In this document: positions 1-41,697 of the stretch, one piece after another | How the letters are laid out: each line of letters opens with the position of its first letter | Position numbering within the stretch: the stretch's first letter is position 1 | Origin: Pseudomonas sp. PD9R | Lineage (GTDB): Bacteria; Pseudomonadota; Gammaproteobacteria; Pseudomonadales; Pseudomonadaceae | DNA: 64,000 bases | NCBI RefSeq assembly: GCF_019200975.1 | Contig: NZ_JAHTMR010000002.1 | Coordinates: 62,001 to 126,000 of the forward strand | Reading direction: 5' to 3' | Made by a program: the position numbers and the translations under genes | Notes under the pieces: model-generated | Database searches by the model: none | Told to the model about the DNA's origin: nothing | Seen by the model: the letters and a program-made list of their open reading frames with translations, nothing else

Positions 1-1
1 C

Positions 2-211
2 AAGTCACTGATTCGGGTAACAGTGTATGTGAAGTCCACCGCAGACTTTGTCGACCTCAGCGAAGTGGCCAACGGTGCCTCGGATGTCTTCAGTCATGTA
101 TTGGGGGATGCCGGGAAACATACGCGTACAACCATCGGTGTTTATCAATTGCCAAAAAACGCGGCGATAGAAGTCGATATGATCGCGGCACTGCGTCCAT
201 CAGCGTTATAA
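2..211 (+). CDS. RidA/YjgF family protein, C-terminal part (5' end outside window)
   Basis: The reading frame is open from the window edge and ends at the TAA at 209-211. The last ~69 residues match the C-terminal half of the RidA/YjgF/UK114 fold: a segment resembling 'RVTVYVKSTADFVDLSEV', then the hydrophobic strand 'TTIGVYQLPKNAAIEVDMIA', which carries the usual L-P-x-x-A-x-x-E-V/I pattern. RidA proteins hydrolyse reactive enamine/imine intermediates released by PLP enzymes. The gene lies 81 bp upstream of a cupin gene and is co-oriented with a cluster that contains an aminotransferase, so an imine-handling role in that pathway is plausible (inference). The true start cannot be seen. Confidence 0.8.
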   Translation, partial: KSLIRVTVYVKSTADFVDLSEVANGASDVFSHVLGDAGKHTRTTIGVYQLPKNAAIEVDMIAALRPSAL

Positions 212-292
212 GTAAATCGCTTGGCTTTACAGCGCTGAACCGTTCACATAAGGTTCAGCGTTCATGTTTATAAAATAAGAAGGAACGTGCGA

Positions 293-778
293 ATGGATAA
301 CTTTCAAGGTGCGTTTTTTTCATATAAGGATTTTCGTCAGAGTTTGCATCATCAGCCAACAAGTCCAAAGGTTTGGAAGGGCGCGGAACTGGCGGGACTA
401 CCCCAGGCACTGGAGGCCAGTGAGGTCGATATCGTTGCGTTAGCCCACGACAAGAATATCGAAGGCTGCGAAGTGACACCCGGCATGGCGATCGCCATGC
501 AATGGCTGAAGCCGGGTGTAGTACTCAATGGGCACGCCCATTCCTGGTGGCATCTGTTTGTCATCCAGTCCGGCAACGGTTTGTTGACCCTGGGTGATGC
601 CGATGAGGTCAACGTCAGCAGCGGCGACGTGTTGCTGGTCCCGGCCTGGACCAGGCACGGCTTCGTCAACACCAGCGTGGATACGCCACTGGCCATGCTG
701 AACATGAGCAACATGCCGCAAATGGCGCTGCTCTCGAATTTCGCCGACAGCCACGGGCTGATCACCACCCCGGCATAA
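293..778 (+). CDS. cupin-domain protein
   Basis: A 161-residue single-domain cupin. The ATG at 293 was chosen over the in-frame GTG at 287 because an AAGGA Shine-Dalgarno sits at about 279-284. The central part reads as a double-stranded beta-helix: 'NGHAHSWWHLFVIQSGNGLLTLGD', with H-x-H and a Gly-rich turn, then 'VSSGDVLLVPAWTRHGFVN' (motif 2 with PxxxxH). Such proteins bind a divalent metal and serve as small dioxygenases, isomerases or ligand sensors. The substrate cannot be told from sequence. A strong terminator follows, so this gene and the RidA-like gene may form their own transcript beside the downstream cluster. Confidence 0.8.
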   Translation: MDNFQGAFFSYKDFRQSLHHQPTSPKVWKGAELAGLPQALEASEVDIVALAHDKNIEGCEVTPGMAIAMQWLKPGVVLNGHAHSWWHLFVIQSGNGLLTLGDADEVNVSSGDVLLVPAWTRHGFVNTSVDTPLAMLNMSNMPQMALLSNFADSHGLITTPA

Positions 779-797
779 CCCCTCCATTTTCCCCTCA

Positions 798-835
798 AGG
801 GAGCCAGCATTCGCTGGCTCCCTTTTGTTTTTTTG
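798..835 (+). terminator. rho-independent terminator after the cupin gene
   Basis: Stem AAGGGAGCCAGC / GCTGGCTCCCTT with a 4-nt loop, followed by TTGTTTTTTT. It separates the cupin gene from the GST-led cluster. Confidence 0.9.
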
Positions 836-993
836 GCGTTTTGCGGGGCAATCACCTGACCACCGGCAGACCAAAAAACAACTTTCTGTATCGATTGAAA
901 CAAGCAAATTCTGTATCTATCCAGCCTCGAATCAACTTACTACGATCACTTCCAATGCAGGTTAATCATGCAGCCATTGCAATGGAGTGTTCT

Positions 994-1641
994 ATGGAAA
1001 ACAACAAGCTCAAACTTTATGTGGGTGCGGACTTTGTCAGTGCCTTTGCGATGTCGGCTTTTGTAGCGCTCAAGGAAAAGCAACTTTCGTTTGAATTTAT
1101 CACCCTGAATTTAAAAGCTCGGCAGAACTATCAGGCCAGTTATCGTGATGTTTCGCTGACCTGCAAGATTCCAACATTAGTTCACGAAGGTTTTGCGCTG
1201 TCGGAATCATCGGCCATCGCCGAATACCTCGACGAACTCACGCCAGGGCATAACAGGCTCTTCCCACAGGACATCAAGCAACGCGCCCGTGCCCGTCAAC
1301 TGCAGGCCTGGTTGCGCAGTGATTTGCTGGTTGTGCGCAAAGAGCGCCCGTTTGATCTCGTGTACTTCGGCAAAAAGGACACTGCGCTGTCCGATGACGC
1401 CCGTGCGGCGGTCGAGCGTTTGTTTTTTGTCGCGGATCGCTTGCTGCCAGAGGGTGCCGAGCATCTGTTCGGTGACTGGAGCATCGCCGACACCGACCTG
1501 GCCATCATGCTCAACCGGCTGGTCGCCAATGGCGATCAGGTGCCTGCGCGGCTGGCGGCGTATGTCCGTCGGCAGTGGGATCGCGACAGCGTTCGGGCAT
1601 GGATGGACATAGAGCGCGTAGCGCCAGCCATCCAGTCATAA
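994..1641 (+). CDS. yfcF: glutathione S-transferase, YfcF type
   Basis: 215 residues from the ATG at 994, with GGAG about 8 nt upstream. An upstream in-frame extension to 841 has no ribosome binding site and is not homologous. The N-terminal thioredoxin-like domain (about 1-85) carries 'SESSAIAEYL' (71-79), the glutathione gamma-glutamyl binding motif. The all-helical domain begins with 'RARARQLQAWLRSDL' and contains 'FGDWSIADTDLA', the GST folding motif. The protein aligns well by eye with E. coli YfcF, which has glutathione transferase/peroxidase activity. It leads a tight run of co-directional genes (27 bp to the next gene), so it may conjugate or detoxify an intermediate of that pathway (inference). 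Confidence 0.88.
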   Translation: MENNKLKLYVGADFVSAFAMSAFVALKEKQLSFEFITLNLKARQNYQASYRDVSLTCKIPTLVHEGFALSESSAIAEYLDELTPGHNRLFPQDIKQRARARQLQAWLRSDLLVVRKERPFDLVYFGKKDTALSDDARAAVERLFFVADRLLPEGAEHLFGDWSIADTDLAIMLNRLVANGDQVPARLAAYVRRQWDRDSVRAWMDIERVAPAIQS

Positions 1642-1668
1642 CGGCCAGCACACATCGGGAGCACTGCC

Positions 1669-3009
1669 ATGCAGGGAATGTCGGAGCAGGAAAAATATAA
1701 ACCCTATAACTCACGCACCATCCGCGAGACACCGTACTGGCATAAGCTGACGCCCGCGTTGCAGGAGGCCATGACCGTCGTGGCTCGGGTCATGCCATTT
1801 CGCACCAACGAATACGTTCTTGGGACGCTGATCGATTGGAGCAACATTCCGGACGATCCGATTTTCCGCATGACCTTTCCTCACAAGGACATGTTGCTAC
1901 CGGAAGAATATGCGTCACTCAAGTATCTGATTGACCAGGACGACAGCGCCGCCATCAAGCGCCGGATCGAGGCAATCTGGCTGCGGATGAACCCACACCC
2001 GGCAGGCCAGTTGACGCACAACGGCGTGACCCTCGACGGAAAAATCCTGGCGGGCATTCAGCACAAGTACCGCGAGACCGTGTTGTTTTTCCCCGGTGCC
2101 GGTCAGACCTGTCACGCGTATTGCACCTTCTGTTTCCGCTGGGCGCAGTTCATTGGCGAAGAAGAACTCAAGTTCAACGCCCGTGAATCCCAGGAGCTGG
2201 TGAGTTACTTGCGGGTGCACACCGAAGTCACCGATGTGCTGATCACCGGGGGCGACCCGCTGATCATGAACACGCGCTCGCTGGCGGGTTACGTCGAACC
2301 GTTGCTGGAGCTGCCACACCTGCAAAACATCCGCATCGGCACCAAATCCGTGGCGTATTGGCCGCAGCGGTTTGTCAGTGACAAGGATGCACCCGAGCTG
2401 CTGGAACTGTTTAAGCGCATCGTCGCGGCAGGGAAAAATCTGTCGATCATGGGCCACTACAACCACCCGGTTGAGATTCGCCAGAACATCGCCCGGCAGG
2501 CGGTCGAGTGCATTCGTTCCACCGGCGCGACCCTGCGCATGCAGGCGCCCGTGATCCGCCACATCAACGAAAACCCGGCCGATTGGGCGGCGTTGTGGAC
2601 CGAAGGCGTGCGGCTGGGGGCGGTGCCTTATTACATGTTCGTCGAACGCGACACCGGCCCCAGCCACTATTTCGCGATGCCATTGGCCCGGGCATTCGAG
2701 ATCTTTCAGGCGGCGTATCGCACGGTGTCCGGGCTGGCGCGTACGGTGCGCGGTCCGTCCATGAGCACCTTCTACGGCAAGGTCTTGATCAACGGCATCG
2801 AGACCGTCGCCGGGGAAAAAGTCTTCGTCTTGCAGTTCCTCCAGGCGCGCAATCCGCAATGGGTGTTGCGCACTTTCTATGCACGCTTCGACCCTCACGT
2901 GACCTGGTTCGATGACTTGCGCCCAGCCTTCGGCGAGCGTGCATTTTTCTTTCAGACCGAGACCGTCGCAACGCCGGAATTGATACCGGTGCTGCTGCAA
3001 ACGGCGTAG
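1669..3009 (+). CDS. KamA-like radical SAM aminomutase
   Basis: 446 residues; start at ATG 1669 with GGGAG 7 nt upstream. The radical SAM motif CxxxCxxC is Cys148/152/155, followed by the glycine-rich 'TGGDPL' (193-198), as in the lysine 2,3-aminomutase family. Near the C terminus, 'RGPSMSTFYGK' (361-371) occupies the place of the PLP-lysine loop, making Lys371 the candidate Schiff-base residue. Family members move an alpha-amino group to the beta carbon of lysine, glutamate, arginine or proline using SAM and PLP. EpmB is a relative that modifies EF-P, but here no epmA or efp is adjacent. The neighbours suggest a biosynthetic beta-amino acid step. The substrate is unknown. Confidence 0.85.
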   Translation: MQGMSEQEKYKPYNSRTIRETPYWHKLTPALQEAMTVVARVMPFRTNEYVLGTLIDWSNIPDDPIFRMTFPHKDMLLPEEYASLKYLIDQDDSAAIKRRIEAIWLRMNPHPAGQLTHNGVTLDGKILAGIQHKYRETVLFFPGAGQTCHAYCTFCFRWAQFIGEEELKFNARESQELVSYLRVHTEVTDVLITGGDPLIMNTRSLAGYVEPLLELPHLQNIRIGTKSVAYWPQRFVSDKDAPELLELFKRIVAAGKNLSIMGHYNHPVEIRQNIARQAVECIRSTGATLRMQAPVIRHINENPADWAALWTEGVRLGAVPYYMFVERDTGPSHYFAMPLARAFEIFQAAYRTVSGLARTVRGPSMSTFYGKVLINGIETVAGEKVFVLQFLQARNPQWVLRTFYARFDPHVTWFDDLRPAFGERAFFFQTETVATPELIPVLLQTA

Positions 3010-3031
3010 GACAATTCACAGGAGTAGGGAC

Positions 3032-3907
3032 ATGAGCGGTATTCCATTTGATCAACGCGAAGGAAGGATCTGGCTGGACGGCGAGTTCGTCGAGTGGTCC
3101 GAGGCGCGCCTGCATGTGCTGACTCACGGCCTGCATTACGCAGGCACGGTGTACGAAGGCGAGCGCGTGTACAACGGCAAGATCTTTAAATTGCGCGAAC
3201 ACAGCGAGCGGCTGTATCGCTCGGCACAGTTGATGGATTTCGCCATCCCATTTGAGCTTGAGGAACTGGAGGCGGCCAGTTATGAACTGCTGCAGCGTAA
3301 CAATGTGGTCGACGGTTACCTGCGGCCGGTGGCCTGGCGCGGCAGCGAGATGATATCCACCTCGGCGCGTTTCAACCGCGTACACGTGGCGATCGCCTGC
3401 TGGCAATGGCCGAGCTATTTCGACCCGGCGGCGCGGATGGCCGGCATCCGCTTGAAAACCGCCACGTGGCGTCGTCCGCCACCGAACAGCAGCCCCTTCG
3501 AAGCCAAGGCCTCCGGGCATTACCAGATCGCCACGCTGAGCAAGCACGACGCGGAAAACTACGGCTATCACGATGCGTTGATGCTCGACTGGCGCGGCCA
3601 TGTCGCCGAAGCCACCAGCGCCAATGTGTTCTTCGCCAAAGGTCGGACTTTGTACACGCCTGTGCCGGATTGTTTTCTCAACGGCATTACCCGGCAGACC
3701 GTCATCGAACTGGCCAGGGCCCTGGATTACCAGGTGATCGAAACAACGATTTTGCCTACGCAACTGGGCGACTTTGACGAGTGTTTTCTGACGGGCACCG
3801 CCGCTGAAATCACGCCCGTGCAGAGCATCGATGAGCAGCACTATCGACCGGGCAACGCCTGCGCCGAGTTGATTGCCGCCTACACCTCAACCGTAAACGC
3901 CGGATAA
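3032..3907 (+). CDS. class IV (branched-chain type) aminotransferase
   Basis: 291 residues; ATG 3032 has AGGAG 8 nt upstream. The fold-type IV signature is complete: 'HGLHYAGTVYEGERVY' at the N terminus, the PLP lysine at Lys159 in 'EAKASGHYQIA' (matching the E. coli IlvE lysine), 'EATSANVF' (193-200) and 'FLNGITRQTVIELA'. The family includes IlvE, D-amino acid aminotransferase and aminodeoxychorismate lyase; the 'K-A-S-G-H-Y' spacing is most like IlvE. It sits 22 bp after the radical SAM gene and 18 bp before the dioxygenase gene, so it is more likely a dedicated pathway enzyme than the housekeeping IlvE. Substrate not determinable. Confidence 0.87.
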   Translation: MSGIPFDQREGRIWLDGEFVEWSEARLHVLTHGLHYAGTVYEGERVYNGKIFKLREHSERLYRSAQLMDFAIPFELEELEAASYELLQRNNVVDGYLRPVAWRGSEMISTSARFNRVHVAIACWQWPSYFDPAARMAGIRLKTATWRRPPPNSSPFEAKASGHYQIATLSKHDAENYGYHDALMLDWRGHVAEATSANVFFAKGRTLYTPVPDCFLNGITRQTVIELARALDYQVIETTILPTQLGDFDECFLTGTAAEITPVQSIDEQHYRPGNACAELIAAYTSTVNAG

Positions 3908-3925
3908 ACAGCCAGGAATCTCACC

Positions 3926-4684
3926 ATGCCAGATCAAGGGATTGTTGCCTCTAAACCTTACGTATCACTGGGCCATCGCCATGAAGAATTGTCGGTGCGA
4001 GGCTGGACGGTGCTGACACCAGGGGAATTTTCCCACGACGTAGTCCGCACATTGCACGAGTTCGGCCCGGTCATTCCGCAGTTCAATGGGCAGATGGCTT
4101 TTGCCATTACTCGCAAGCCGGGTTATGAGGATTTGCCGTATTCCCAAAGCATGAACGGCATAGGCCCGCACACCGAAGCACCAGTCTATGGACCGCCGCC
4201 ACGCTACCTCGCGCTGCATTGCCATAAACAGGCCGCCTGCGGGGGCGGGCATACGGGGCTGGTGGATGGTTATGAGTTTTTGAAATCCCTTGAGCACAGC
4301 GAACCAGAACTGCGCGAATGGCTGGATGACACGCCGGTGGAGTTCGTCGCCACGGCCAAACCCGGCGAGCCCGGGCAACGTCGGGTCAAGGAATACATCC
4401 TGACGCCTACAGAAGACGGGGATATTTTCCGCTTCAGCTACAACCAGTTTCACTACGGCGATGTGAATCCGTCGAAGGAAGCCTTGCAGCAATCCCAAGT
4501 CGCCAACAGCACTTCACCCCTGGCCAGGTTTGCCGTGCTTGGTGAAGCGTTCTTCGTCGAGCACAACATTCCGGTGCTGATACCCGACGGATGCATGCTG
4601 ATTTGGGACAACTGGCGAATGATTCATGCGCGCAGTCGATACACTGACCCGGCGCGCAACCTGACCCGCTATTGGCTGGCTTGA
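3926..4684 (+). CDS. TauD/TfdA-family Fe(II)/2-oxoglutarate dioxygenase
   Basis: 252 residues. The metal triad is visible: His82-x-Glu84 in 'GPHTEAPVYGPPP', and the distal His234 in 'NWRMIHARSRYTDPARN', with Arg244/Arg248 as candidates for 2-oxoglutarate binding. Glu in place of Asp in HxD/E is common in amino-acid hydroxylases of this superfamily. Such enzymes hydroxylate, desaturate or epimerise amino acids and carrier-bound intermediates. Embedded between the aminotransferase (18 bp) and the AurF-like gene (67 bp), it probably oxidises the carbon skeleton made upstream (inference). Confidence 0.83.
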   Translation: MPDQGIVASKPYVSLGHRHEELSVRGWTVLTPGEFSHDVVRTLHEFGPVIPQFNGQMAFAITRKPGYEDLPYSQSMNGIGPHTEAPVYGPPPRYLALHCHKQAACGGGHTGLVDGYEFLKSLEHSEPELREWLDDTPVEFVATAKPGEPGQRRVKEYILTPTEDGDIFRFSYNQFHYGDVNPSKEALQQSQVANSTSPLARFAVLGEAFFVEHNIPVLIPDGCMLIWDNWRMIHARSRYTDPARNLTRYWLA

Positions 4685-4751
4685 ATTTTCCGTCGCCCCT
4701 AATTCAATTGGCGTACCCCGTGGCGGGTACGCGTCCTACAGGTATCGCGTC

Positions 4752-5711
4752 ATGCAAACAGCAATCGAGATCGCCAAGGTCGATCATCAACTGATCGTGC
4801 GGCTCAATCAGGCTTGGACCAAGCGCGCCACGGTCTGCTCGCCGGACAGGGCAAACATCGACGAAGTGTTCGACCCGGCGCGCCCGGATTACCCGGAGTG
4901 CATGGTGCCGTTTTTCCACCATCCGACATTCCAGGCCTTGAGTGAAGAACTCAAAAGCAGCGTGGTGACCTGGGGCTGGATCGGCTACAACCTGCGCACC
5001 GTGACCGCCGAAGAACATATCGTCAATCCGGCGCTTAGCGTCATTGCCAATCAATACCTGGGCAAGGACGACTGGCATTTTCGCGAGGCTATGCAACAAA
5101 CGCTGATCGACGAGCACTACCACACGCTCATGCACCTGCGGGCGATCGAGCGGACCAAGCTTGAGCGGGCGCTCGATCAGGATCTGGATTTGCCGCCGTC
5201 AGTCACTTATCTGCGACTGATCGCCTTGCGTGAAACGCTGACCGAGCAGTGGCAGCGGGATTTGGCTGCGATCACCTTTGCTGTAGTGGCCGAAATCAGC
5301 GTCAACGCTTATCTGGACTTGCTGGCAGACGATCAAACGATTCAACCGCAAAACCGGCGCGTGGCCGATCAGCACAACCGCGACGAATACGCCCATAGCA
5401 AGGTGCTGGCCGAAGTGGCCAAGGTCATGTACGCGAACATGCAACCGGCCCAGCGGGAATTTTTCGCACGTAACTTGTCGGTGGCGCTGAGTGCCTTTAT
5501 CGCCCAGGACTACTCGATGTGGGAGGCGATTCTGACGCAGCTGGGGGTCGAGGAGGCGGCGCTGATCATTGCCGACACCCGTGAGAACAACAAGAACGCG
5601 ACGATCATGCGCGACTACAGCGGCCTGCATCGTCTGGCGCAGGACCTGGGCATCAGCGAGCAGATCGATTTCGATTTTCGTCCGACCCTCAAAGCCACCG
5701 CAGCGGCCTGA
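4752..5711 (+). CDS. AurF-like diiron N-oxygenase
   Basis: 319 residues. Ferritin-like helices supply a full set of candidate AurF-type diiron ligands: Glu87 or Glu88 ('TAEEH'), Glu121-x-x-His124 ('DEHYH'), Glu181 ('AEISVNAY'), His208, Glu212 and His215 ('HNRDEYAH'). The spacings (60 residues between Glu121 and Glu181, 27 to His208, then 4 and 3) equal those known for AurF. AurF and CmlI oxidise an amine to hydroxylamine, nitroso and nitro. The flanking genes are amino-acid enzymes rather than aromatic ones, so the substrate may be an aliphatic amine (inference). The ATG at 4752 lies 67 bp after the dioxygenase stop; no strong Shine-Dalgarno is seen. Confidence 0.82.
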   Translation: MQTAIEIAKVDHQLIVRLNQAWTKRATVCSPDRANIDEVFDPARPDYPECMVPFFHHPTFQALSEELKSSVVTWGWIGYNLRTVTAEEHIVNPALSVIANQYLGKDDWHFREAMQQTLIDEHYHTLMHLRAIERTKLERALDQDLDLPPSVTYLRLIALRETLTEQWQRDLAAITFAVVAEISVNAYLDLLADDQTIQPQNRRVADQHNRDEYAHSKVLAEVAKVMYANMQPAQREFFARNLSVALSAFIAQDYSMWEAILTQLGVEEAALIIADTRENNKNATIMRDYSGLHRLAQDLGISEQIDFDFRPTLKATAAA

Positions 5712-5725
5712 ACCAGGAGGTGCGT

Positions 5726-6526
5726 ATGTCCGTTCCTGTGTATGAAGTGTTCGCGATTCGTGTCGGCGCCAATGCCCAGCGCACTGCCAAAGAGAATTTT
5801 CTTTACGACGCCTGCTGTGGTGATCCGAATGCGTCGATGCCGCTGGATTACTACTTCTGGGTCATTCGTAACGGGCAGCAGGTGATCGTGGTCGACACCT
5901 GCTTTCAACCGGCCACGGCTGATCGACGCAACCGTCAGATGTATCGCCTGCCGGAAGAATCGCTGCGCCAACTGGACATCGATCCTGCGCAGGTCGAGCA
6001 CCTGATCCTCACGCATCTGCATTGGGATCATGCCGGCAATCTGGGGCTGTTTCCGGGAGCGACGGTGCATCTGCAAGAGGCAGAATTGCGCTTTTGCACC
6101 GGGCCGAAAATGGCCCATCGCACAGTCAACAAAACCTACGAAGTCGAGGACGTGATGTCGGCGTTGCCGCCGTTGTTCGAAGGGCGGATGCGCTTGCACA
6201 AGGGCACCGTCGAGGTGAAGCCGGGTGTCACGCTGCATCCGGTGGGCGGGCATACACCCGGCAGCCAGGTGGTTCGGGTGAACACCGCGCGCGGCTGGAT
6301 TGTGTTGGCCTCCGACGCCGCACATTTGTGGATGAATATCCGCCAGCGCAGCCCGTTTCCGATTCTGGATGATCTGGCGCAGACACTTGAAGCGTTCATC
6401 GAAATCGATCGCCTGGCCGACAGCGAAGACCACGTGATCCCCGGCCACGACCCACTGATCGCCGAACGCTTCCCCCACTGGTACGACGACCCGCACATCA
6501 TCTGTCTGCACCAAACACCCCGCTAA
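5726..6526 (+). CDS. metallo-beta-lactamase-fold hydrolase, lactonase-like
   Basis: 266 residues from the ATG at 5726, preceded by a perfect GGAGG at 5716-5720; the in-frame GTG at 5720 overlaps this site and is rejected. Metal ligands: His97-x-His99-x-Asp101-His102 ('THLHWDHAG'), His176 ('GGHTPGS'), Asp197 ('ASDAAH') and His241 ('IPGHDPLI'). This layout is that of the AHL-lactonase (AiiA/AttM) branch of the superfamily. It could open a lactone in the pathway, hydrolyse a thioester, or quench a signal. It is the last gene of the run and ends at a REPIN. Confidence 0.85.
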   Translation: MSVPVYEVFAIRVGANAQRTAKENFLYDACCGDPNASMPLDYYFWVIRNGQQVIVVDTCFQPATADRRNRQMYRLPEESLRQLDIDPAQVEHLILTHLHWDHAGNLGLFPGATVHLQEAELRFCTGPKMAHRTVNKTYEVEDVMSALPPLFEGRMRLHKGTVEVKPGVTLHPVGGHTPGSQVVRVNTARGWIVLASDAAHLWMNIRQRSPFPILDDLAQTLEAFIEIDRLADSEDHVIPGHDPLIAERFPHWYDDPHIICLHQTPR

Positions 6527-6531
6527 ACCAC

Positions 6532-6611
6532 TGTAGGAGCTGCCGCAGGCTGCGATCTTTTGATGTTGATTTTTTAAGATCAAAAGACCGCAGCCTGCGG
6601 CAGCTCCTACA
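6532..6611. repeat. REPIN, family A (inverted pair)
   Basis: Two copies of the family A unit (TAGGAGCTGCCG.AGGCTGCG, then ATCTTTTGA) face each other around a short AT-rich centre. It lies between the convergent MBL-fold and MocR genes. Confidence 0.9.
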
Positions 6612-6621
6612 GGGAATGTGG

Positions 6622-8052
6622 TTAGCCCTGGTTTTTGAGGATTTGGCCCAAGGTCGCCACAGCTTCATCAATCCTCGGCGAATACGGGGCCCCGCAGCCA
6701 ATGCGCACAAAGTGATTAAAACGCTTGGCATTGGAAAAGATATCCCCAGGTGAAATCTGGATGCCGACCTTCAACGCCTCATGGAAAAACGCCATGGACG
6801 AATGCTCACGCGGCAGTTCTACCCACAGCAACGTCCCGCCCTGCGGGTTGGTCACGCCAGTGCCTGCGGGAAAGTAGCGAGTAATCGCCGCGCTCATCTG
6901 CTGGCGCTGCTGCGTCAGGGTTTTCCTCAATCGCCGTAGGTAACGTTCGTAGGACGGTGTCCCCATGAACGCACTGACGGCTAATTGCGACAACGCTTCG
7001 CAACCACGGGACTGGGTGTGCTTGAGCATTTCCACGCGGTCGTGCCATTTGCCTGCGCTGATCCAGCCCAGGCGCATGCCCGGTGCGAGGGTTTTGTTCA
7101 GCGAGGCGCAATAGATCAGGTTGCCCGTGCGGTCCCAGTGTTTGAGCGTCGACAACGGTTGCTCGGTGTCCACCAGGTCGCCGTAGGTGTCGTCTTCAAT
7201 CAGTACCGTGTTGTATTCGGTGCATAGCTGTACCAGCCGCGCCTTGTTGGCGTCGGGCATGATGCTGCCCAACGGGTTGTGCAGATTGGGAATGACGATC
7301 AGCGCCTTGATTCGTTCAGGACCTTGCAGCAGTTGTTCGAGGGCTAGCAGATTGATGCCGCTGCGTGTCGAGGCCGGGACTTCCAGCACTCGCAGGTTCA
7401 GGCTTTCAAGAATTTGCAGCAGGCCGTAAAAGGTCGGCGATTCCACTGCCACCGCGTCGCCGGGGCGGGTGACTGCGCGCAAGGCCAGGTTGATCGCTTC
7501 GGTGGCGCCGTTGGTGATGACGATACGATCGGCTGTGAGGTGGGCCTTGGCGGTCAGCGCCCGTCGGGCAAGGATGTTGCGCAGCGCGCTGTTGCCACTG
7601 GTCGAACCCGCCGCACCGAAGAGGTGCTGATCGTGGCGCAGCGCCTTGATCATGTTGTCTTGCAGGGTTTTCAGTGGGTACAGCTCCGGGGCGCAATAGG
7701 CGCTGGCGAAATTGACCTTGATCGTCGCCCGCTGACTGGCCTTGAGCACCGAGGACACCTGTTCATGGATGCCGACGTAGACTCCGGTATCCAGCAGCGG
7801 GGGCAGGGTGGCCGGAACGGGTTTGGCCGGTGTATCGGGCTGGCGAATGTAGTTGCCCGAACGTGGCCGGGCTTCCAGTACGCCACAGTCTTCCAGCTCG
7901 CGGCACACCTGCACCGCAGTCGACAGGCTGACGGCGTGTTTTTCCATCATCAATCGAATCGAGGGAAAGCGTTCACCGGTTTTCAGGGTGCCGCTGCGGA
8001 TGGCGTCCAGGTAATGGTTGGCCAACTGACGGTAGAGGGGCGTCGTGTTCAT
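6622..8052 (-). CDS. MocR-type regulator: GntR winged helix fused to aminotransferase fold
   Basis: 476 residues from the ATG at 8052 (upstream GAGG); a longer frame to 8295 lacks homology. Residues 1-75 form a GntR winged helix-turn-helix ('GERFPSIRLMMEKHAVSLSTAVQ'), joined by a Pro-rich linker to a fold-type I aminotransferase domain (about 110-476). The PLP lysine is Lys320 in 'SLNKTLAPGMRLGW', with 'NPTFYG/NLHNPLG'-type active-site strands. MocR proteins (PdxR, GabR) use PLP plus an amino ligand as effector. The gene is convergent with the AurF-like cluster, not divergent, so control of that cluster is possible but unproven. Confidence 0.88.
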   Translation of the reverse strand: MNTTPLYRQLANHYLDAIRSGTLKTGERFPSIRLMMEKHAVSLSTAVQVCRELEDCGVLEARPRSGNYIRQPDTPAKPVPATLPPLLDTGVYVGIHEQVSSVLKASQRATIKVNFASAYCAPELYPLKTLQDNMIKALRHDQHLFGAAGSTSGNSALRNILARRALTAKAHLTADRIVITNGATEAINLALRAVTRPGDAVAVESPTFYGLLQILESLNLRVLEVPASTRSGINLLALEQLLQGPERIKALIVIPNLHNPLGSIMPDANKARLVQLCTEYNTVLIEDDTYGDLVDTEQPLSTLKHWDRTGNLIYCASLNKTLAPGMRLGWISAGKWHDRVEMLKHTQSRGCEALSQLAVSAFMGTPSYERYLRRLRKTLTQQRQQMSAAITRYFPAGTGVTNPQGGTLLWVELPREHSSMAFFHEALKVGIQISPGDIFSNAKRFNHFVRIGCGAPYSPRIDEAVATLGQILKNQG

Positions 8053-8207
8053 GATGACCTCAGCAATCGCACCACCGAGGTCTTGGGCTGGAAAGTGAGT
8101 TGACGCTCCCCGCAGGCGGACCCGTGGTGCTGAAGGGTTAGGGAAGTGTTTCTGGCGTCGATACTGGAAGAGTAATCGCGGTTTGAGGGGAATCACGGGC
8201 AATAAAA

Positions 8208-8229
8208 AGCCCCGCACGATGGCGGGGCT
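8208..8229 (-). terminator. terminator for the 8378-9082 gene
   Basis: AGCCCCGC/GCGGGGCT stem with an ACGATG loop. Read on the minus strand it is followed by TTTTTATT. The 325-bp gap 8053-8377 otherwise holds the mocR promoter region and a REPIN. Confidence 0.85.
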
Positions 8230-8251
8230 CATTTGTGAGGCGGTGAGGCCT

Positions 8252-8369
8252 CTGTGGCGAGGGAGCTTGCTCCCGCTTGAGTGCGCAGCACTCACAAAAA
8301 ATCTATATGTGTACTTGGATTTTTGGGGCCGCTACGCAGCCCGACGCGAGCAAGCTCGCTCGCCACAGG
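8252..8369. repeat. REPIN, family B variant
   Basis: Facing arms CTGTGGCGAGGGAGCTTGCT and GCGAGCAAGCTCGCTCGCCA enclose about 75 bp, with an inner GAGTGC..GCACTC hairpin. Confidence 0.75.
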
Positions 8370-8377
8370 GGTTTGCT

Positions 8378-9082
8378 TTACTGCGCGGCGATGCTGTAGC
8401 CGTCGAACGCGGTTTGTTGCTGCAGGGCGGTAATGATGTTCTTGCGATTGGTCGCCTGTTCGGCGCCGGTGTTGTCGAGGAACGTCTCGCTTTCCAGCTC
8501 CGCCTCATCGCCTTCGCCGACAAAGGTGAAACCGAGGAATTCCAGGGCCTCGCGGTCGACGTTCAAGCGCGAACGCGGAGTGCGCAGCGGCAAGGTGACG
8601 CTCATGCCGTCCTTGCTGATGGTAAACACTTCGACGTCTTTCTTGACCCGTGCCGCCTTGCTCTTGCCGCTGCTCGGGTTGCTGATGGCCTGGTGCGTCT
8701 GGTTCAGCACCTTCAACGCCAAGCCATAAACGATTTCCTGAAACGCCGGGTCGTCTTTGAAGCTGGAGAGAATGCGGCTGATCGAAAATTTGCTGCTCAG
8801 GTCTTCCAGGGCCGAAATGTCGGCCGCTTCGGCGTCCTTGAGTTGCTTGAGTTCGCCCATCAGTGCGTAGGCTTTATCGTCGTCGAAGCTGTCGTGGGCC
8901 TGACGAATCGCGGTGCGCAGTTCGCGGATCTGGTCGCTTTCACGGGTGGACTGGAAAGCGTCCAGGACCATCTCGCTGATGGTTTTGGCCTGGGACACGT
9001 GTTGTGAAAGATTGATGGAGTTTTCGTATTCCGCTTTGGACGACAAGGTGACTACGGATTCAGCGGTGTTGGAATCGGACAT
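8378..9082 (-). CDS. hypothetical protein, 234 aa
   Basis: I do not recognise a family. The protein is acidic and helical in its first 110 residues (Ser/Thr-rich start, then 'QIRELRTAIRQAHDSFDDDKAYALMGELKQLKD'-like amphipathic helix). A basic patch follows ('SSGKSKAARVKK', about 144-155), then a beta-rich C-terminal part with 'GMSVTLPLRTPRSRLN'. No signal peptide or membrane segment is seen, so it is probably cytoplasmic. It is monocistronic: flanked by a REPIN and terminator downstream and by another REPIN upstream. The base composition resembles the core genes, which argues for a resident Pseudomonas gene. Confidence 0.7.
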   Translation of the reverse strand: MSDSNTAESVVTLSSKAEYENSINLSQHVSQAKTISEMVLDAFQSTRESDQIRELRTAIRQAHDSFDDDKAYALMGELKQLKDAEAADISALEDLSSKFSISRILSSFKDDPAFQEIVYGLALKVLNQTHQAISNPSSGKSKAARVKKDVEVFTISKDGMSVTLPLRTPRSRLNVDREALEFLGFTFVGEGDEAELESETFLDNTGAEQATNRKNIITALQQQTAFDGYSIAAQ

Positions 9083-11074: not shown

Positions 11075-12187
11075 TCACTTGGACAACCGCGTCAGATACT
11101 CTTCCAAGGCTTTCGAGTAGTTATCGGCGTACCACTGGGCATTGAGGGCGATCTGTTTTTTCAGGTTCGCTTCAGAGCCGCAGTTAGCTTCCAGTTGCTT
11201 GGCCGACATCAATTTTTCCGTGGCGCTGTTCGACGGCCCGTTGCCCAGCAACTCAAACAGTTTGAGCTGGCCTTCGGGTTGCAGCGCGTGCTGGATGAAC
11301 TGCATCGCCGGTTGTGTGCCGGCCGGGTTGCCGGTCAGCACCGCCCAACTGCTGGAGTTGATGAAGCCGTTGTCGAAGCTCCAGCGCACGCGATTGTCGG
11401 TGTCTTCGCTGAGCAGCTTGGCGCGGGTGTGCCAGATCGCACCGACCGACACTTCGCCGTCGACCATCAGTTGCTGGCTCTCGGCACCCGAACTCCAGAA
11501 CGACAGCACGTGGGGTTTGATCTCGTCGATCTTTTTCATCGCCCGTGGCACGTCCAGCGGGTAGAGCTGATCGGCCGGTACGCCGTCAGCCAGCAACGCC
11601 GCTTCGAGCATGCCGTTCATCCACTTGTACAGCGTGCGCTTGCCGGGGAATTTCTTCACATCCCAGAAATCGGCCCAGGTCTTCGGCCCGTTGTCGCCGA
11701 ACTTGGCGCTGTCCCAGGCCATGACATAGCTGAACTGGTAGCTGGCGATGCCGAAATCGGAAGCGAGCGACGGGGCAACCTGATCGCGCTTGATCACGCT
11801 GTAATCGAGCGGTTGCAGGATTTTTTCGCGGCCCAGCACGAGGGCGCTGTAGCTCTCGACATCGACCACGTCCCAGCTTGGCTGACCGCTGGCCAGTTGC
11901 GAGCGGATCGCGCCTTCGGTCGGGCCGGCGCCGTCGATGCGCACCTGGATGCCGGTGTTCTTGGTGAAGGTGTCGGTCCACGCCGAGCGGAACGCATTCA
12001 GGGCATCGCCACCCCAGTTGACCACCACCAGCGGCTTGTCCGCCGACCAACTGATGCCGCTGCGCAGCGCCAGTGGCACCGCCGCCAGCAGGCCCATGGC
12101 CTGGATGAAGGTGCGGCGGTTGATCTGGCCGTCGCGGGCCTTTTCGATAAGCACTTCGATGCAGTCTTGTTGGTGATCCTGGCGCAT
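11075..12187 (-). CDS. ABC transporter periplasmic binding protein (PotD/YdcS-like)
   Basis: 370 residues from the ATG at 12187, with GAGGAC about 8 nt upstream. The N terminus carries a twin-arginine-like export signal ('INRRTFIQAMGLLAAVPLAL', near residues 23-42). The mature part begins 'KPLVVVNWGGDALNAFRSAW', typical of the PotD/PotF/spermidine-putrescine family; 'WDVVDVESY' and 'SVGAIWHTRAKLL' are ligand-lobe motifs of that family. It captures the substrate for the two permeases. The long linker before the RR motif is somewhat unusual. Confidence 0.88.
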   Translation of the reverse strand: MRQDHQQDCIEVLIEKARDGQINRRTFIQAMGLLAAVPLALRSGISWSADKPLVVVNWGGDALNAFRSAWTDTFTKNTGIQVRIDGAGPTEGAIRSQLASGQPSWDVVDVESYSALVLGREKILQPLDYSVIKRDQVAPSLASDFGIASYQFSYVMAWDSAKFGDNGPKTWADFWDVKKFPGKRTLYKWMNGMLEAALLADGVPADQLYPLDVPRAMKKIDEIKPHVLSFWSSGAESQQLMVDGEVSVGAIWHTRAKLLSEDTDNRVRWSFDNGFINSSSWAVLTGNPAGTQPAMQFIQHALQPEGQLKLFELLGNGPSNSATEKLMSAKQLEANCGSEANLKKQIALNAQWYADNYSKALEEYLTRLSK

Positions 12188-12277
12188 GGGCAAGTCCTCA
12201 GTCGGCGGGTGCCTGCGTGGGCACCGGCCTTTTTGTTGTCATTGGAAGAGAGCTTTGTGACGCAATTTTTTATGGTG

Positions 12278-13396
12278 TCAGGCCTGCAACAGGAAGCTTT
12301 GCTGTACCGGCCAGCTCAGCCACACCGGCGCACCGCTGGGCATCAGCGCGCCAGGGTGATTGCCGGGCACGGACAGGTTGATCGGCAGGGTATCGCCGCC
12401 AACCTTGAGCGCCAGATGGGTGCTGGAACCCTGATAGACCTTGTCGGTGAGTTGTGCGGGCATCACGTTGTAGCCGTCCCGGGTCGGGCACTCGCTGTGC
12501 AGTTCCATGTGCTCGGGGCGCACGGCCAGCACGATCGGTGCATTGCTCAAGGCGTTCGGGGCCAAGGCGTGCAGGACGCTGGTACCACAGCGACCGCTGG
12601 CGGTTTGGCCGTTGCGGGCCAGGTTGTCGAGCGGGAACAGGTTCATCTTGCCGAGGAATTCGGCGACGAAGCGGCTCTCGGGGCGGTTGTAGATGTTTTC
12701 CGGGGTATCGACCTGGGTCAGCTTGCCGTGATTGAAAATCGCGATGCGCGACGACAGCGCCAAGGCTTCGTTCTGGTCGTGGGTGACGAAAACGAAACTG
12801 GTGCCGACCTGACGGTGGATGCGTTGCAGCTCGGTTTGCAGCTGTTCGCGCAGGTTTTTGTCCAGCGCCGACAGCGGCTCATCGAGCAGCAGCAGTTCCG
12901 GTTCGAACACCAGCGCTCGGGCAATCGCCACGCGCTGTTGCTGACCGCCCGACAGTTCGGAAGGCTTCTTGTGCATGTGCGCACCGAGGCCGACCACTTC
13001 AAGGATGTGCTTGACCCGACGCTGGCGCTCGTCGGCTGCGACTTTGCGGATGCGCAGCGGGTAGGCCACGTTGTCCGCCACGCTCATGTGCGGGAACAGC
13101 GCATAACCCTGGAACACCATGCCGTAGTTCCGCTTCTCGGCGGAGCGCTTGATGATGTCGACGCCTTGCTCCATCAGCTTGCCCGACGTCGGGCTGAGGA
13201 AACCGGCCAGGATCATCAGCAAGGTGGTTTTGCCCGAGCCGGAGGGACCCAGCAGGGTAAGGAATTCGCCTTGGCGAACGTCAAGATCGACGTTATCCAG
13301 CGCCGCGAAACGACCGTAATACTGGCTGATACCTTGTGCGCTGAGCTGAATCGCTGAACGGCTGGACACTATGGAGTTCCTCTTTTTATTGCCCAT
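12278..13396 (-). CDS. polyamine-type ABC transporter ATPase (PotA-like)
   Basis: 372 residues. Walker A GPSGSGKTT (50-58), Q-loop Gln96, signature LSGGQQQR (148-155), Walker B LLLLDEP (168-174), H-loop in 'VTHDQ' and a C-terminal TOBE domain ('VRPEHMELH'). It powers the importer whose other three genes follow after 90 bp. It is first in the operon; the promoter should lie in 13397-13560. The LysR gene upstream is also leftward. The co-location with an amidohydrolase operon suggests uptake of that operon's substrate (inference). Confidence 0.92.
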   Translation of the reverse strand: MGNKKRNSIVSSRSAIQLSAQGISQYYGRFAALDNVDLDVRQGEFLTLLGPSGSGKTTLLMILAGFLSPTSGKLMEQGVDIIKRSAEKRNYGMVFQGYALFPHMSVADNVAYPLRIRKVAADERQRRVKHILEVVGLGAHMHKKPSELSGGQQQRVAIARALVFEPELLLLDEPLSALDKNLREQLQTELQRIHRQVGTSFVFVTHDQNEALALSSRIAIFNHGKLTQVDTPENIYNRPESRFVAEFLGKMNLFPLDNLARNGQTASGRCGTSVLHALAPNALSNAPIVLAVRPEHMELHSECPTRDGYNVMPAQLTDKVYQGSSTHLALKVGGDTLPINLSVPGNHPGALMPSGAPVWLSWPVQQSFLLQA

Positions 13397-13560
13397 AAAA
13401 CGTACGAGGACGGATGCGAATCCGAAATGGGCTTTGGGCTTATTATTGTTAAAAATATCGCTACATCAATGGAATTATTTTGCTGGTATTGGTTAGTTTT
13501 ATTACTCAATTCGATTGTGTTTTTCACACTGCCTCAGAGCCTTGAAACAGAGCCCTGACC

Positions 13561-13650
13561 TGTAGGAGCGAGCCTGCTCGCGATAGCAATTTTTCAGGCA
13601 GCATGAATGTTGAATGTGATGGCCTCATCGCGAGCAGGCTCGCTCCTACA
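13561..13650. repeat. REPIN, family B
   Basis: TGTAGGAGCGAGCCTGCTCG and its inverted copy face each other around a 41-bp AT-rich centre, between the LysR stop and the ABC operon promoter. Confidence 0.92.
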
Positions 13651-13668
13651 GGGGGTGTGTCACAGGGT

Positions 13669-14574
13669 TTAAAGGGTGTCTTGCCAGGTCTGATGCGACG
13701 ATTGCAGCTGCGTCTTGACCCAGTTGCTGAAGGCCTGAACCACCGCGCGCTCAGCCTTCAGCGGGTCGGCGGCCAGGTAATAGCCACGGTGCAGGTCGAT
13801 GGTGATGTCGAACGGACGCACCAGCAAACCCTTGGACAGGGCATCGCCGCTGATCAGGTTGTCGCCGATGGCGATACCTTGGCCGGCAATGCAGGCCGAC
13901 TGCGCGCAATGCGCATCGGAAAACAGAATGCCGCTGACCGCGTTGACCCCTGAGGCGCCAGCAGCCGTCAGCCAGACGCGCCAGTCCGAGTAGTCGGTCA
14001 TGTGCAGCAGCGGGTAGGTGCTGAGCTCCTGCGGGTTTTTCAACCCGCCCAATGCATTGATCAAGCGCGGGCTGCACACCGGGAAGAAGCGCAATGCGGC
14101 GATCTCTTCAACCACCATCTCCGGCCAGTCACCAATGCCATACGCAATGAACAGATCGACGTTGGAGTTGTGGGTGTCGTCCGGAGTCCGGGGCGAAATC
14201 AGCTGCAATTGCACCTGCGGGTACTGACGAAGGAACGCGCCAATGTGGTGGCACAACCAATAGGTGGCGAACCCGGGGGCACAACTTATGCACAGCCGCC
14301 CGGAAACTTCCTGGTCACCGACGAGCTGACCGGCATCGAGCAGGTTCAACAAAATGCCGTGCACCTCGCGGGCATAGCGTTCGCCTTGATAGGTCAGGCC
14401 AATGCCGCGACCGATGCGCTCGGTCAGGGCGAAACCGACGCATTCCTCCAGCTTGCTGATCTGATGGCTGATGGCACTACGGGTCAGGTTCAGTTCACGG
14501 GCGGCGACCGACACGCTGCCCAGGCGGGCAACCGCGTCCAGCGCGCGCAGGGCTGTCATCGAAGGAAAGCGCAT
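13669..14574 (-). CDS. LysR-family regulator (GcvA-like)
   Basis: 301 residues. The N-terminal winged helix 'LRALDAVARLGSVSVAARELNLTRSAISHQISKLEE' is characteristic of the GcvA/AmpR subgroup, followed by a periplasmic-binding-protein-like effector domain. The gene is divergent from the amidohydrolase operon across a 270-bp gap that holds a perfect inverted repeat (14646-14671). It therefore most likely regulates that operon and perhaps the ABC importer downstream of its own gene. Confidence 0.9.
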   Translation of the reverse strand: MRFPSMTALRALDAVARLGSVSVAARELNLTRSAISHQISKLEECVGFALTERIGRGIGLTYQGERYAREVHGILLNLLDAGQLVGDQEVSGRLCISCAPGFATYWLCHHIGAFLRQYPQVQLQLISPRTPDDTHNSNVDLFIAYGIGDWPEMVVEEIAALRFFPVCSPRLINALGGLKNPQELSTYPLLHMTDYSDWRVWLTAAGASGVNAVSGILFSDAHCAQSACIAGQGIAIGDNLISGDALSKGLLVRPFDITIDLHRGYYLAADPLKAERAVVQAFSNWVKTQLQSSHQTWQDTL

Positions 14575-37960: not shown

Positions 37961-38042
37961 GGCTTGGGTGACAGCCGTGCGCGGGGTGAGAAACCGGCAA
38001 TCAAGGCAACCGGTAGACCCGAAGGTCTCCCACGCACAGCCG
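37961..38042 (-). ncRNA. C4-like antisense RNA
   Basis: On the minus strand the segment folds as a three-way structure: an outer stem CGCAC..GCGTG-type (38033-38037 with 37977-37981) encloses hairpin AGACC-TTCG-GGTCT (38015-38028) and hairpin ACCGG..CCGGT (37993-38014). The loop of the second hairpin holds CCTTGATT, exactly complementary to AATCAAGG, which includes part of the leader ORF's Shine-Dalgarno (37926-37933). A second block GCTGTCAC (37968-37975) can pair with GTGGCAGC (37940-37947), one G-U. Two paired blocks around a coupled start match the C4 control logic of phages P1 and P7. Confidence 0.7.
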
Positions 38043-38064
38043 CCATAAAGCCATATCGCAGACG

Positions 38065-38103
38065 AAAAAAAACGCCACGACAGGTTTTGGGGCGCTTTGC
38101 GCC
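38065..38103 (-). terminator. candidate terminator upstream of the C4-like RNA
   Basis: On the minus strand, GGCGCAAAGCGCC (38091-38103) or the alternative AGCGCC..GGCGTT stem is followed by TTTTTTTTCG. An AATCAAGG copy (38102-38109) abuts the hairpin, so pairing with the C4-like loop could alter termination (inference). Farther upstream is a perfect GTCGCTG/CAGCGAC hairpin at 38130-38149. Confidence 0.55.
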
Positions 38104-38426
38104 TTGATTGTTGCGGGCTCTCACACCCGGTCGCTGAATTGGCAGCGACGGTGGGAGGGTATCGTGAGGACCATTTCCCTGCAACCTTCAAAAGCTCCGA
38201 GCCCAGATATTCCAGGATGGGAAAATTTAGGCTTTACTAATTTTTATGAGATATATGATATAAACGACGTATCGGAGTGATCTGAAGCTCTTGAGGGTAA
38301 AGTTCAGCCTGTCCTTTTTTAAATAGATAAAGTGTGGCTCTGAAAGTGATTTCTAATAGCGGATTCATAAGTGCTGGTAATTTGATGGGCTCCCATAATT
38401 AAGTCTTTCATGAAGAGATTGTAAAA

Positions 38427-39341: not shown

Positions 39342-39525
39342 AAAATATCAAATGGTACTGTTGCTGAGTTTTGGTCTAGCGAATAAAGCGACTGGATATA
39401 AGTTGTAAATAAACTATCTAGTCGTAATGTTTTATATGGTGGGTAGTGTGAGCGAGAATCTAGGATAAGATTGATAAATTTTATTCGAGAGCCCGCAAAA
39501 TATTCAGCGAGTTTTTGCTTGCATG

Positions 39526-41639: not shown

Positions 41640-41697
41640 TGTGTGAATCCTTGATTCGTTAGCGAGCGGTTTGGGGCTGTAGCACCGAAAAGACAAA

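What the first reader, a model, noticed from the sequence alone, without database searches (positions are those of the whole stretch)
994..6526. Compact AurF/KamA/TauD/aminotransferase cluster: likely undescribed small-molecule pathway
Five enzymes and a GST lie on one strand with gaps of 15-67 bp: radical SAM aminomutase, class IV aminotransferase, 2-oxoglutarate dioxygenase, diiron N-oxygenase, lactonase-like hydrolase. There is no NRPS, PKS, carrier protein or transporter. The set would shift or add an amine, hydroxylate carbon, oxidise nitrogen and open or close a ring. I cannot match it to any pathway I know (not mgo, ham, obafluorin or azomycin). A product derived from a beta-amino acid with an oxidised nitrogen is inferred.
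Basis: partly seen in the sequence, partly recalled or inferred. Interest (0 to 1): 0.85.

Follow-up and report, generated by a model that had tools for sequence, protein, structure and literature searches.

The report
Uncharacterised Pseudomonas amino-acid-ligase gene cluster
A conserved set of about a dozen genes in soil Pseudomonas, also found in rearranged form in a few other bacteria, probably makes and exports a small amide built from altered amino acids without the usual large peptide-assembly enzymes, and I could not match it to any described product.

Summary
In detail: GST, KamA-type radical SAM enzyme, class IV aminotransferase, HxE-type 2OG oxygenase, AurF-type diiron oxygenase and lactonase-fold hydrolase lie on one strand at 994-6526. 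Upstream in the same genome lie a MocR regulator, a 12-segment transporter-like protein, an ATP-grasp protein whose modelled relative best matches L-amino acid ligases, and a RidA protein; a cupin and a second MocR complete it. In 60 named loci KamA-AT4-TauD-AurF-MBL keep order and strand in 59 of 59 complete cases, including Trinickia, Paraburkholderia and Amantichitinum. Seven loci add an Ldh2-type reductase. The 12 genes tested are under purifying selection and metal and PLP motifs are kept. Best reading: an NRPS-independent pathway to an exported amide or dipeptide containing a rearranged, C- and N-oxidised amino acid; substrates and product are unknown. KamA belongs to a divergent clade below every curated aminomutase cut-off that recurs in other cryptic clusters. 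Nearest analogue in logic: mangotoxin. New variant of a known kind.

The parts
1..211 (+). RidA (YjgF) family gene, C-terminal part; whole gene is L075:13717-14211
   Evidence: YjgF_endoribonc 6.2e-15 and Ribonuc_L-PSP 1.7e-11; 55 of 60 loci
293..778 (+). cupin protein (start uncertain, ORF from 287)
   Evidence: Cupin_2 1.2e-11; 59 of 60 loci at 36-91% identity
797..824 (+). terminator-like hairpin with T tail after the cupin gene, probable end of the first transcription unit
   Evidence: 12 pairs, 8 of them G-C; the number of hairpins found in 1-8400, 9, equals the 9.1 expected in shuffles, so only the strength of this one speaks for it
994..1641 (+). glutathione S-transferase family protein
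   Evidence: PRK15113 294.5 bits, cut-off 150; 59 of 60 loci
1669..3009 (+). KamA-II: divergent radical SAM/PLP aminomutase-like enzyme
   Evidence: KamA family 1.6e-39; 2a5h lysine 2,3-aminomutase 4.1e-22; Cys, Arg and PLP-Lys motifs in 59 of 59
3032..3907 (+). class IV (branched-chain type) aminotransferase
   Evidence: PRK07544 458.3 bits, cut-off 396; 59 of 60 loci
3926..4684 (+). TauD-family 2-oxoglutarate oxygenase with an HTE...H triad
   Evidence: TauD 1.8e-16; H82, E84, H234 invariant in 9 aligned; 60 of 60 loci
4752..5711 (+). AurF-family diiron oxygenase
   Evidence: AurF 1.2e-44; seven ligand positions invariant in 7 aligned; 60 of 60 loci by choice, as AurF was the query
5720..6526 (+). 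metallo-beta-lactamase-fold hydrolase, lactonase-like
   Evidence: Lactamase_B 5.9e-18; metal motifs in 59 of 59; 60 of 60 loci
6533..6610 (.). REP-like inverted repeat between the convergent MBL and MocR genes
   Evidence: read by eye
6622..8052 (-). MocR-type regulator (GntR DNA-binding domain plus aminotransferase-like domain); likely start 8052, ORF open to 8295
   Evidence: GntR 6.8e-08 and Aminotran_1_2 1.9e-36; 56 of 60 loci

Best explanation
A dedicated, NRPS-independent biosynthetic cluster for an exported, amino-acid-derived amide, most likely an antimetabolite or signal. Inferred sequence of events: the KamA-II radical SAM/PLP enzyme moves the amino group of an alpha-amino acid (1,2-amino shift to a beta-amino acid); the HxE 2OG oxygenase hydroxylates a carbon; the AurF-type diiron enzyme oxidises a nitrogen (to hydroxylamine, nitroso or nitro); the class IV aminotransferase, accompanied in seven loci by an Ldh2-type reductase and in Pseudomonas by RidA (imine or enamine hydrolysis), adjusts an alpha-amino or keto centre; the ATP-grasp enzyme joins the product to a second amino acid; the MFS-like protein exports it; two MocR regulators sense an amino acid-PLP adduct. 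GST, cupin and MBL are tailoring or self-protection steps. Shown here: gene content, conservation, kept catalytic motifs, ligase-type fold of the model. Inferred: every substrate, the order of steps and the product.
For: Five-gene order kept in 59 of 59 complete loci; TauD and MBL in 60 of 60, KamA, AT4, GST and cupin in 59 of 60, ATP-grasp in 56 of 60, MocR2 in 56, MocR1, MFS-like and RidA in 55 of 60. Purifying selection, dN/dS 0.019-0.256. Metal and PLP motifs. ATP-grasp: ATP-grasp_4 in 10 of 11 relatives and LAL_C2 in 7 of 11 at E up to 0.1; Foldseek best match L-amino acid ligase RizA 1.5e-15. MFS-like protein with 12 hydrophobic segments. Independent rearranged versions in Trinickia and Paraburkholderia with their own MFS and MocR genes. 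No NRPS or PKS gene recognised among the cluster genes.
Against: Trinickia and Paraburkholderia loci (3) show no ATP-grasp, RidA or MFS-like homolog in the stretches held, so amide formation may not be part of the core. The ATP-grasp model has mean pLDDT 59.9 with residues 202-295 under 50, and the own-genome ATP-grasp protein gives no Pfam hit at 0.001. The MFS-like protein has no Pfam family over threshold and a poor model, so 'export' is a guess from topology. The KamA protein is below all equivalog cut-offs. A lactonase-like hydrolase and MocR regulators are also common in catabolic operons (recalled).
Confidence: 0.65

Rival explanations
1. A catabolic or detoxification operon: the genes take up and break down an external nitro- or beta-amino compound or a lactone signal (lactonase-like hydrolase, GST, aminotransferase, oxygenases), with MocR as substrate sensor and the MFS-like protein as importer.
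For: Hydrolase nearest to AHL lactonases (AidB 64.1 bits; lactonases and related hydrolases among solved structures); branched-chain-type aminotransferase over its cut-off; MocR regulators; Ldh2-family dehydrogenase in 7 of 60 loci.
Against: An ATP-consuming L-amino acid ligase-type enzyme in 56 of 60 loci; a radical SAM aminomutase clade that otherwise sits beside NRPS, PKS, AsnB-type and ATP-grasp genes; all lactonase equivalog cut-offs missed.
Confidence: 0.15
2. A diazeniumdiolate- or N-N-bond-type signal or metallophore pathway in the style of mgo/pvf and ham, with AurF as the N-oxygenase.
For: AurF-type N-oxygenases are described in mgo and fragin clusters (titles and abstracts in the listing); cupin present.
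Against: No NRPS gene recognised in the cluster; no MetRS-like or SidA-type N-hydroxylase gene as in L094, L095 and L104.
Confidence: 0.08
3. Dirammox-like oxidation of ammonia or amine nitrogen to hydroxylamine and N2, with AurF acting like DnfA.
For: DnfA is described as a homolog of AurF and CmlI, in a cluster with PLP-dependent proteins (PMC9136411 and PMC11440038, passages).
Against: The 2Fe-2S protein DnfB and the glutamine amidotransferase DnfC described there were not recognised among the cluster genes; the dnf list given has no aminomutase, 2OG oxygenase or ligase.
Confidence: 0.02

Closest known systems
Mangotoxin cluster mboABCDEF of P. syringae (PMC13185094, passages)
   Same: NRPS-independent; free-standing ATP-grasp amino acid ligases together with a diiron oxidase; small peptide antimetabolite from a Pseudomonas
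   Different: MboA is a heme-oxygenase-like diiron oxidase, not AurF-type; no aminomutase, 2OG oxygenase, aminotransferase, GST or MBL reported in the passages read
Pbo cluster of P. syringae pv. phaseolicola (PMC8473136, passages; PMC3639832, passages)
   Same: lysine aminomutase-like PboF, ATP-grasp ligase-like PboG, 2OG oxygenase PboH and two MFS genes
   Different: contains NRPS and PKS domains; PboH is of the isoleucine hydroxylase (Ido) type; no AurF, class IV aminotransferase or MBL in the part of its table that I saw
AurF (aureothin) and CmlI (chloramphenicol) arylamine oxygenases
   Same: nearest solved relatives: 5hyg 2e-64, 3chh 3e-62 (that 5hyg is CmlI is recalled); all seven metal ligand positions kept
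   Different: 244.3 bits against a cut-off of 620 for the AurF equivalog; no carrier protein and no arylamine gene recognised nearby
Lysine, arginine and glutamate 2,3-aminomutases
   Same: radical SAM cysteines, the Arg after them, and the PLP lysine
   Different: far below all equivalog cut-offs (111.8 of 525.4, 96.6 of 600, 100 of 650 bits); the LAM Asp330 position is Ser or Val (LAM numbering recalled)
Dirammox dnf cluster of Alcaligenes (PMC9136411, passages)
   Same: AurF homolog with PLP-dependent proteins
   Different: DnfB and DnfC not recognised here

Membership tests
NRPS-independent amino acid ligase (ATP-grasp) pathway | ATP-grasp ligase gene in the cluster | tested here: met
   56 of 60 loci; ATP-grasp_4 in 10 of 11 relatives at E up to 0.1, best 1.2e-6; best fold match RizA 1.5e-15 on a model of mean pLDDT 59.9. 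Not seen in Trinickia and Paraburkholderia loci.
NRPS-independent amino acid ligase (ATP-grasp) pathway | no NRPS or PKS in the cluster | tested here: met
   none recognised among the cluster genes and their direct neighbours
NRPS-independent amino acid ligase (ATP-grasp) pathway | amide-forming activity | not testable with these tools
   needs enzyme assay
2,3-aminomutases (lysine, arginine, glutamate, EpmB equivalogs) | score over an equivalog cut-off | tested here: not met
   111.8 of 525.4, 96.6 of 600, 100 of 650, 96.2 of 369.3 bits
2,3-aminomutases (lysine, arginine, glutamate, EpmB equivalogs) | radical SAM cysteines and PLP lysine | tested here: met
   59 of 59; aligned with an arginine aminomutase
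AurF family (PF11583) | Pfam cut-off and diiron ligands | tested here: met
   153 bits, cut-off 29.6; E87, E121, H124, E181, H208, E212, H215 invariant in 7 aligned; patterns in 60 of 60 once two I-to-V neighbours are allowed
AurF 4-aminobenzoate N-oxygenase equivalog | score over cut-off | tested here: not met
   244.3 of 620 bits
mgo/pvf and ham diazeniumdiolate clusters | NRPS gene in the operon (for mgo text; for ham recalled) | tested here: not met
   none recognised
Dirammox (dnf) | DnfB (2Fe-2S) and DnfC (glutamine amidotransferase) beside DnfA | tested here: not met
   not recognised among cluster genes
AHL lactonases (AidB, AiiA, AttM, AhlS, YtnP) | score over an equivalog cut-off | tested here: not met
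   best 64.1 of 360 bits; metallo-beta-lactamase motifs are shared

The most novel reading that the evidence does not exclude
A new pathway type in which a previously unassigned aminomutase clade (KamA-II) supplies a beta-amino acid that an AurF-fold enzyme N-oxidises outside any carrier protein, and an ATP-grasp ligase joins it into an exported dipeptide-like antimetabolite; KamA-II would be a general beta-amino acid supplier for many unrelated cryptic clusters.
Probability: 0.35. Interest if true: 0.75.

Novelty: new variant of a known kind. Interest (0 to 1): 0.58.

Why it matters
A KamA of this type occurs in about one tenth of the Pseudomonas genomes sampled (30 of 298 at 83% identity or more, own genome included), yet I found no description of the cluster in the searches listed. 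It combines a radical SAM amino shift, a 2OG oxidation and an AurF-type N-oxidation apparently without carrier proteins, so each step should be testable with free small molecules. The KamA-II clade also turns up next to PKS, NRPS, AsnB-type and MetRS-type genes, so assigning its substrate would help to interpret many cryptic clusters at once.

Tried and rejected
Dirammox: considered because DnfA is an AurF homolog; rejected because DnfB and DnfC were not recognised here. mgo/ham: rejected for lack of an NRPS. Canonical lysine 2,3-aminomutase: rejected by score and by the Asp330 position. Pbo as the same cluster: rejected because of its NRPS and PKS genes. An AurF-like gene of Burkholderia terrae downregulated with a fungus (PMC5209427, passages): no neighbourhood given there, not pursued. 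The structure prediction of the MFS-like protein gave a poor model (mean pLDDT 49.9) and was not searched. Wider search for AurF orthologs: class 2 of 369 genomes, the second at 33% identity; phylum 1 of 398, the own genome; no new cluster. In plasmid records the AurF protein had 11 matching records, all under 60% identity, whose surroundings I did not look at. An Ldh2 enzyme supplied from elsewhere in this genome is only weakly possible: best 30% identity. KamA homologs of 46-55% identity were followed as possible distant versions: of the 12 phylum hits besides the own one, 11 neighbourhoods were fetched (G433 was not) and none showed an AurF, TauD, AT4 or MBL match at E 1e-4 and 35% coverage. 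In the genus, 9 of the 10 KamA matches at 49-66% identity were fetched (G205 was not); 3 of the 9 (L087-L089) had an MBL match and none an AurF, TauD or AT4 match. The promoter scan found nothing (0 sites, 3.1 expected) and the terminator scan found no more than expected (9 against 9.1). The TauD search of solved structures put repeat-type 'SAKe' chains first on short internal-repeat matches; I set them aside in favour of the gamma-butyrobetaine dioxygenase hits (4.1e-8). Text searches list only part of their hits: 20 of 85, 20 of 22, 8 of 9.
Full report
OBSERVATION. Families: GST of the PRK15113 type (294.5 bits, cut-off 150), KamA-type radical SAM (135.8 bits, cut-off 199.2), branched-chain-type class IV aminotransferase (PRK07544, 458.3 bits, cut-off 396), TauD-family oxygenase, AurF-family diiron oxygenase, and a metallo-beta-lactamase-fold hydrolase nearest to AHL lactonases. 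The organism is a Pseudomonas by inference: the 56 loci at 75% AurF identity or more all bear that genus name.

THE CLUSTER IS LARGER THAN THE FINDING. The window starts at position 62001 of contig C23 of its genome. A 15 kb stretch that ends 1 kb inside the window (L075) shows, after a cytochrome bo3-type operon (identified by eye from the ORF translations), a minus-strand MocR regulator (L075:9678-11096), a membrane protein (11249-12346), an ATP-grasp protein (12386-13669), a RidA protein (13717-14211, whose end is window 1-211) and the cupin (window 293-778). On the other side lie a REP-like inverted repeat (6533-6610, by eye) and a second MocR gene (6622-8052, minus). A 12-pair terminator-like hairpin follows the cupin at 797-824; the number of such hairpins in the region is not above chance (9 against 9.1 in shuffles), but this is the strongest. 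I therefore read two co-oriented transcription units flanked by two regulators.

CONSERVATION. A scan of GTDB genome contigs with the AurF protein gave 60 loci; the other genes played no part in choosing them. At 35% identity or more and 40% coverage: TauD 60, MBL 60, KamA 59, AT4 59, GST 59, cupin 59, MocR2 56, ATP-grasp 56, MocR1 55, MFS-like 55 and RidA 55 of 60; the Ldh2 gene 7 of 60. L021, which lacks most, is a 4 kb contig; L003, L017, L025 and L030, which lack MocR2, are contigs that end at or just after the MBL gene. The order KamA-AT4-TauD-AurF-MBL on one strand is kept in 59 of 59 loci that hold all five. Seven loci, from P. gingeri (2), P. fuscovaginae, Amantichitinum, Trinickia (2) and Paraburkholderia, carry one more gene between KamA and AT4, an Ldh2-family reductase (PF02615, 9.7e-100; solved relatives are malate/lactate, sulfolactate and ureidoglycolate dehydrogenases and, lower, Delta1-piperideine-2-carboxylate reductase). 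In the three Trinickia and Paraburkholderia loci the cupin, an MFS gene and GST follow the MBL gene and a MocR gene lies divergently upstream; no ATP-grasp or RidA homolog was seen in the stretches held, which is evidence against amide formation as part of the core. The L056 stretch ends inside its ATP-grasp gene, so RidA could lie beyond it. Downstream genes of this window do not look like part of the cluster: the solute-binding protein is in 16 of 60 loci and the 8378-9082 ORF in 46 of 60.

DISTRIBUTION. In the genus, 38 of 298 genomes have a KamA match at 1e-60 or better, 30 of them (own included) at 83% identity or more. I did not check the neighbourhood of those 30 beyond the own genome and L062, where cupin, GST, AT4 and TauD flank KamA. 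In the phylum sample 13 of 398 match, 12 of them besides the own at 46-55%. Eleven of these 12 neighbourhoods were fetched and none showed the other core enzymes.

SELECTION AND ACTIVE SITES. dN/dS between this genome and five Pseudomonas loci is 0.019 to 0.256 over 12 genes. AurF keeps seven ligand positions (E87, E121, H124, E181, H208, E212, H215; invariant in the 7 aligned; correspondence to AurF numbering recalled). In one search, 58 of 60 met a strict pattern around the DExxH motif; the two misses (L040, L060) are I-to-V changes beside it. TauD has an HTE...H triad (invariant in 9 aligned; HTE in 59 of 59, distal site in 58 of 59, the miss in L054 being a neighbouring change to V). HxE triads are recalled from clavaminate synthase, VioC and AsnO, against HxD in most TauD proteins. 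The four MBL motifs are in 59 of 59. The aminotransferase lysine motif is in 58 of 59; L053 shows a changed reading frame there.

KAMA-II. The radical SAM protein matches lysine 2,3-aminomutase 2a5h at 4.1e-22 but is far below the curated cut-offs for lysine, arginine and glutamate aminomutase and EpmB, as are the three homologs tested, from L076, L090 and L094. In the alignment the three cysteines (148, 152, 155), Arg157 (LAM Arg134, recalled) and the PLP lysine (371) are kept; the LAM Asp293 position is Glu or Asp and the Asp330 position is Ser or Val (LAM numbering recalled, and the second position placed by counting back from the lysine). I read this as an aminomutase with a different side-chain pocket; that is inference. 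The same clade occurs in other clusters: with MBL (48-49%), an AsnB-type gene, a weakly recognised FAD-NAD(P)-binding protein, GST and MFS in L087, and with MBL also in L088 and L089; with an arginine 2,3-aminomutase (634.6 bits, cut-off 600), ATP-grasp and AsnB-type genes in L090; with an N-hydroxylase-like flavoprotein, MetRS-like protein, small cupin and ATP-grasp in L094, and by eye in L095, and similarly on a Rhodococcus plasmid (L104); beside PKS genes in Streptomyces (L101) and an NRPS/PKS gene in Mycetohabitans (L100). The MetRS-cupin-N-monooxygenase association was predicted in 2010 (PMC2922099, passages), where the words 'aminomutase' and 'radical SAM' do not occur.

LIGASE AND TRANSPORTER. 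The ATP-grasp protein is divergent: the own protein has no Pfam hit at 0.001. Pfam ATP-grasp_4 is found in 10 of 11 relatives at E up to 0.1, best 1.2e-6, with ATPgrasp_N and LAL_C2 in 7 of 11 each, best 0.015 and 0.0022. Profile comparison with the L094/L095/L056 ATP-grasp set gives 97% probability, 1.2e-10. The AlphaFold2 model, made of the L001 ortholog, has mean pLDDT 59.9 with a weak middle, yet its best match among solved structures is the L-amino acid ligase RizA (1.5e-15), with a B. licheniformis L-amino acid ligase, YwfE and BacD among the top 18; PurT, PurK and biotin carboxylases, also ATP-grasp enzymes, fill most other places. A sequence search of solved structures gave only weak ATP-grasp hits (best 0.013). 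The membrane protein has 12 hydrophobic segments but no Pfam family over threshold (MFS_1 at 0.13 in 2 of 9), and its model is poor. It is 81-98% identical to L001 across the aligned Pseudomonas loci.

MECHANISM. Given in Best explanation. Shown: content, order, conservation, kept motifs, ligase-type fold of the model. Inferred: substrates, order of steps, product class. The alternative that the genes are catabolic is kept at 0.15 because of the lactonase-type hydrolase and the MocR regulators.

KNOWN SYSTEMS. Mangotoxin is the closest in logic: free-standing ATP-grasp ligases plus a diiron oxidase giving a small peptide antimetabolite (PMC13185094, passages), but with a different oxygenase family and no aminomutase in the passages read. 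The Pbo cluster shares an aminomutase-like gene, a ligase-like gene, a 2OG oxygenase and MFS genes but has NRPS and PKS domains (PMC8473136, passages; PMC3639832, passages). IdnL4 in incednine is a radical SAM enzyme thought to supply beta-glutamate; its activity had not been observed in vitro (PMC11284099, passages). Dirammox is set aside because DnfB and DnfC were not recognised here (PMC9136411 and PMC11440038, passages). Ten text searches of the open-access library showed no paper on this set among the titles listed (lists were capped in 36, 95 and 96). Subscription papers and preprints are not held and no curated cluster database was available, so 'undescribed' means not found there.

VERDICT. 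A real, conserved cluster whose product and function I could not match to anything described; observation confirmed, interpretation partly right. New variant of a known kind; interest 0.58.

Noticed in passing
window 38300-41330: Low G+C stretch (0.416 at 38001-40000, 0.466 at 40001-42000) with three ORFs of 304, 234 and 266 aa next to tRNA-Leu(CAA) at 41802-41886; looks like a small horizontally acquired islet.
   Followed up: no
L094:413-10833 and L095:962-10363: KamA-II beside an N-hydroxylase-like flavoprotein, MetRS-like protein, small cupin, ATP-grasp and a PrpB-like gene: the make-up of an N-N-bond-type cluster.
   Followed up: partly
L087:3943-13261 (also L088, L089): A second Pseudomonas cluster with KamA (65-66% identical) and MBL (48-49%), in L087 also AsnB-type gene, FAD-NAD(P)-binding-like protein, GST, MFS and methyltransferase-like gene.
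   Followed up: partly
L090:98-9957: KamA-II in one stretch with an arginine 2,3-aminomutase over its cut-off (634.6 of 600 bits), ATP-grasp and AsnB-type genes: two aminomutase-type enzymes side by side.
   Followed up: partly
L101:2834-14262: KamA-II between type I PKS genes in Streptomyces with an AMP-binding gene, an aminotransferase and a proline iminopeptidase-family hydrolase, reminiscent of beta-amino acid starter macrolactam clusters (the likeness is partly recalled).
   Followed up: no
G000:C11:5227-5961 and G000:C18:29346-29996: Two further AurF-family (PF11583) proteins in the window's own genome, both over the family cut-off.
   Followed up: no
L001:5649-5942 and the AT4 gene of L053: The cupin of L001 is a shortened ORF (97 aa) and the aminotransferase of L053 has a changed reading frame; decay or sequencing error in single strains.
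   Followed up: no
G000, whole genome: Apart from the cluster gene, only a 22.6-bit match to the KamA family was found in this genome, so no EpmB-type enzyme was seen.
   Followed up: no
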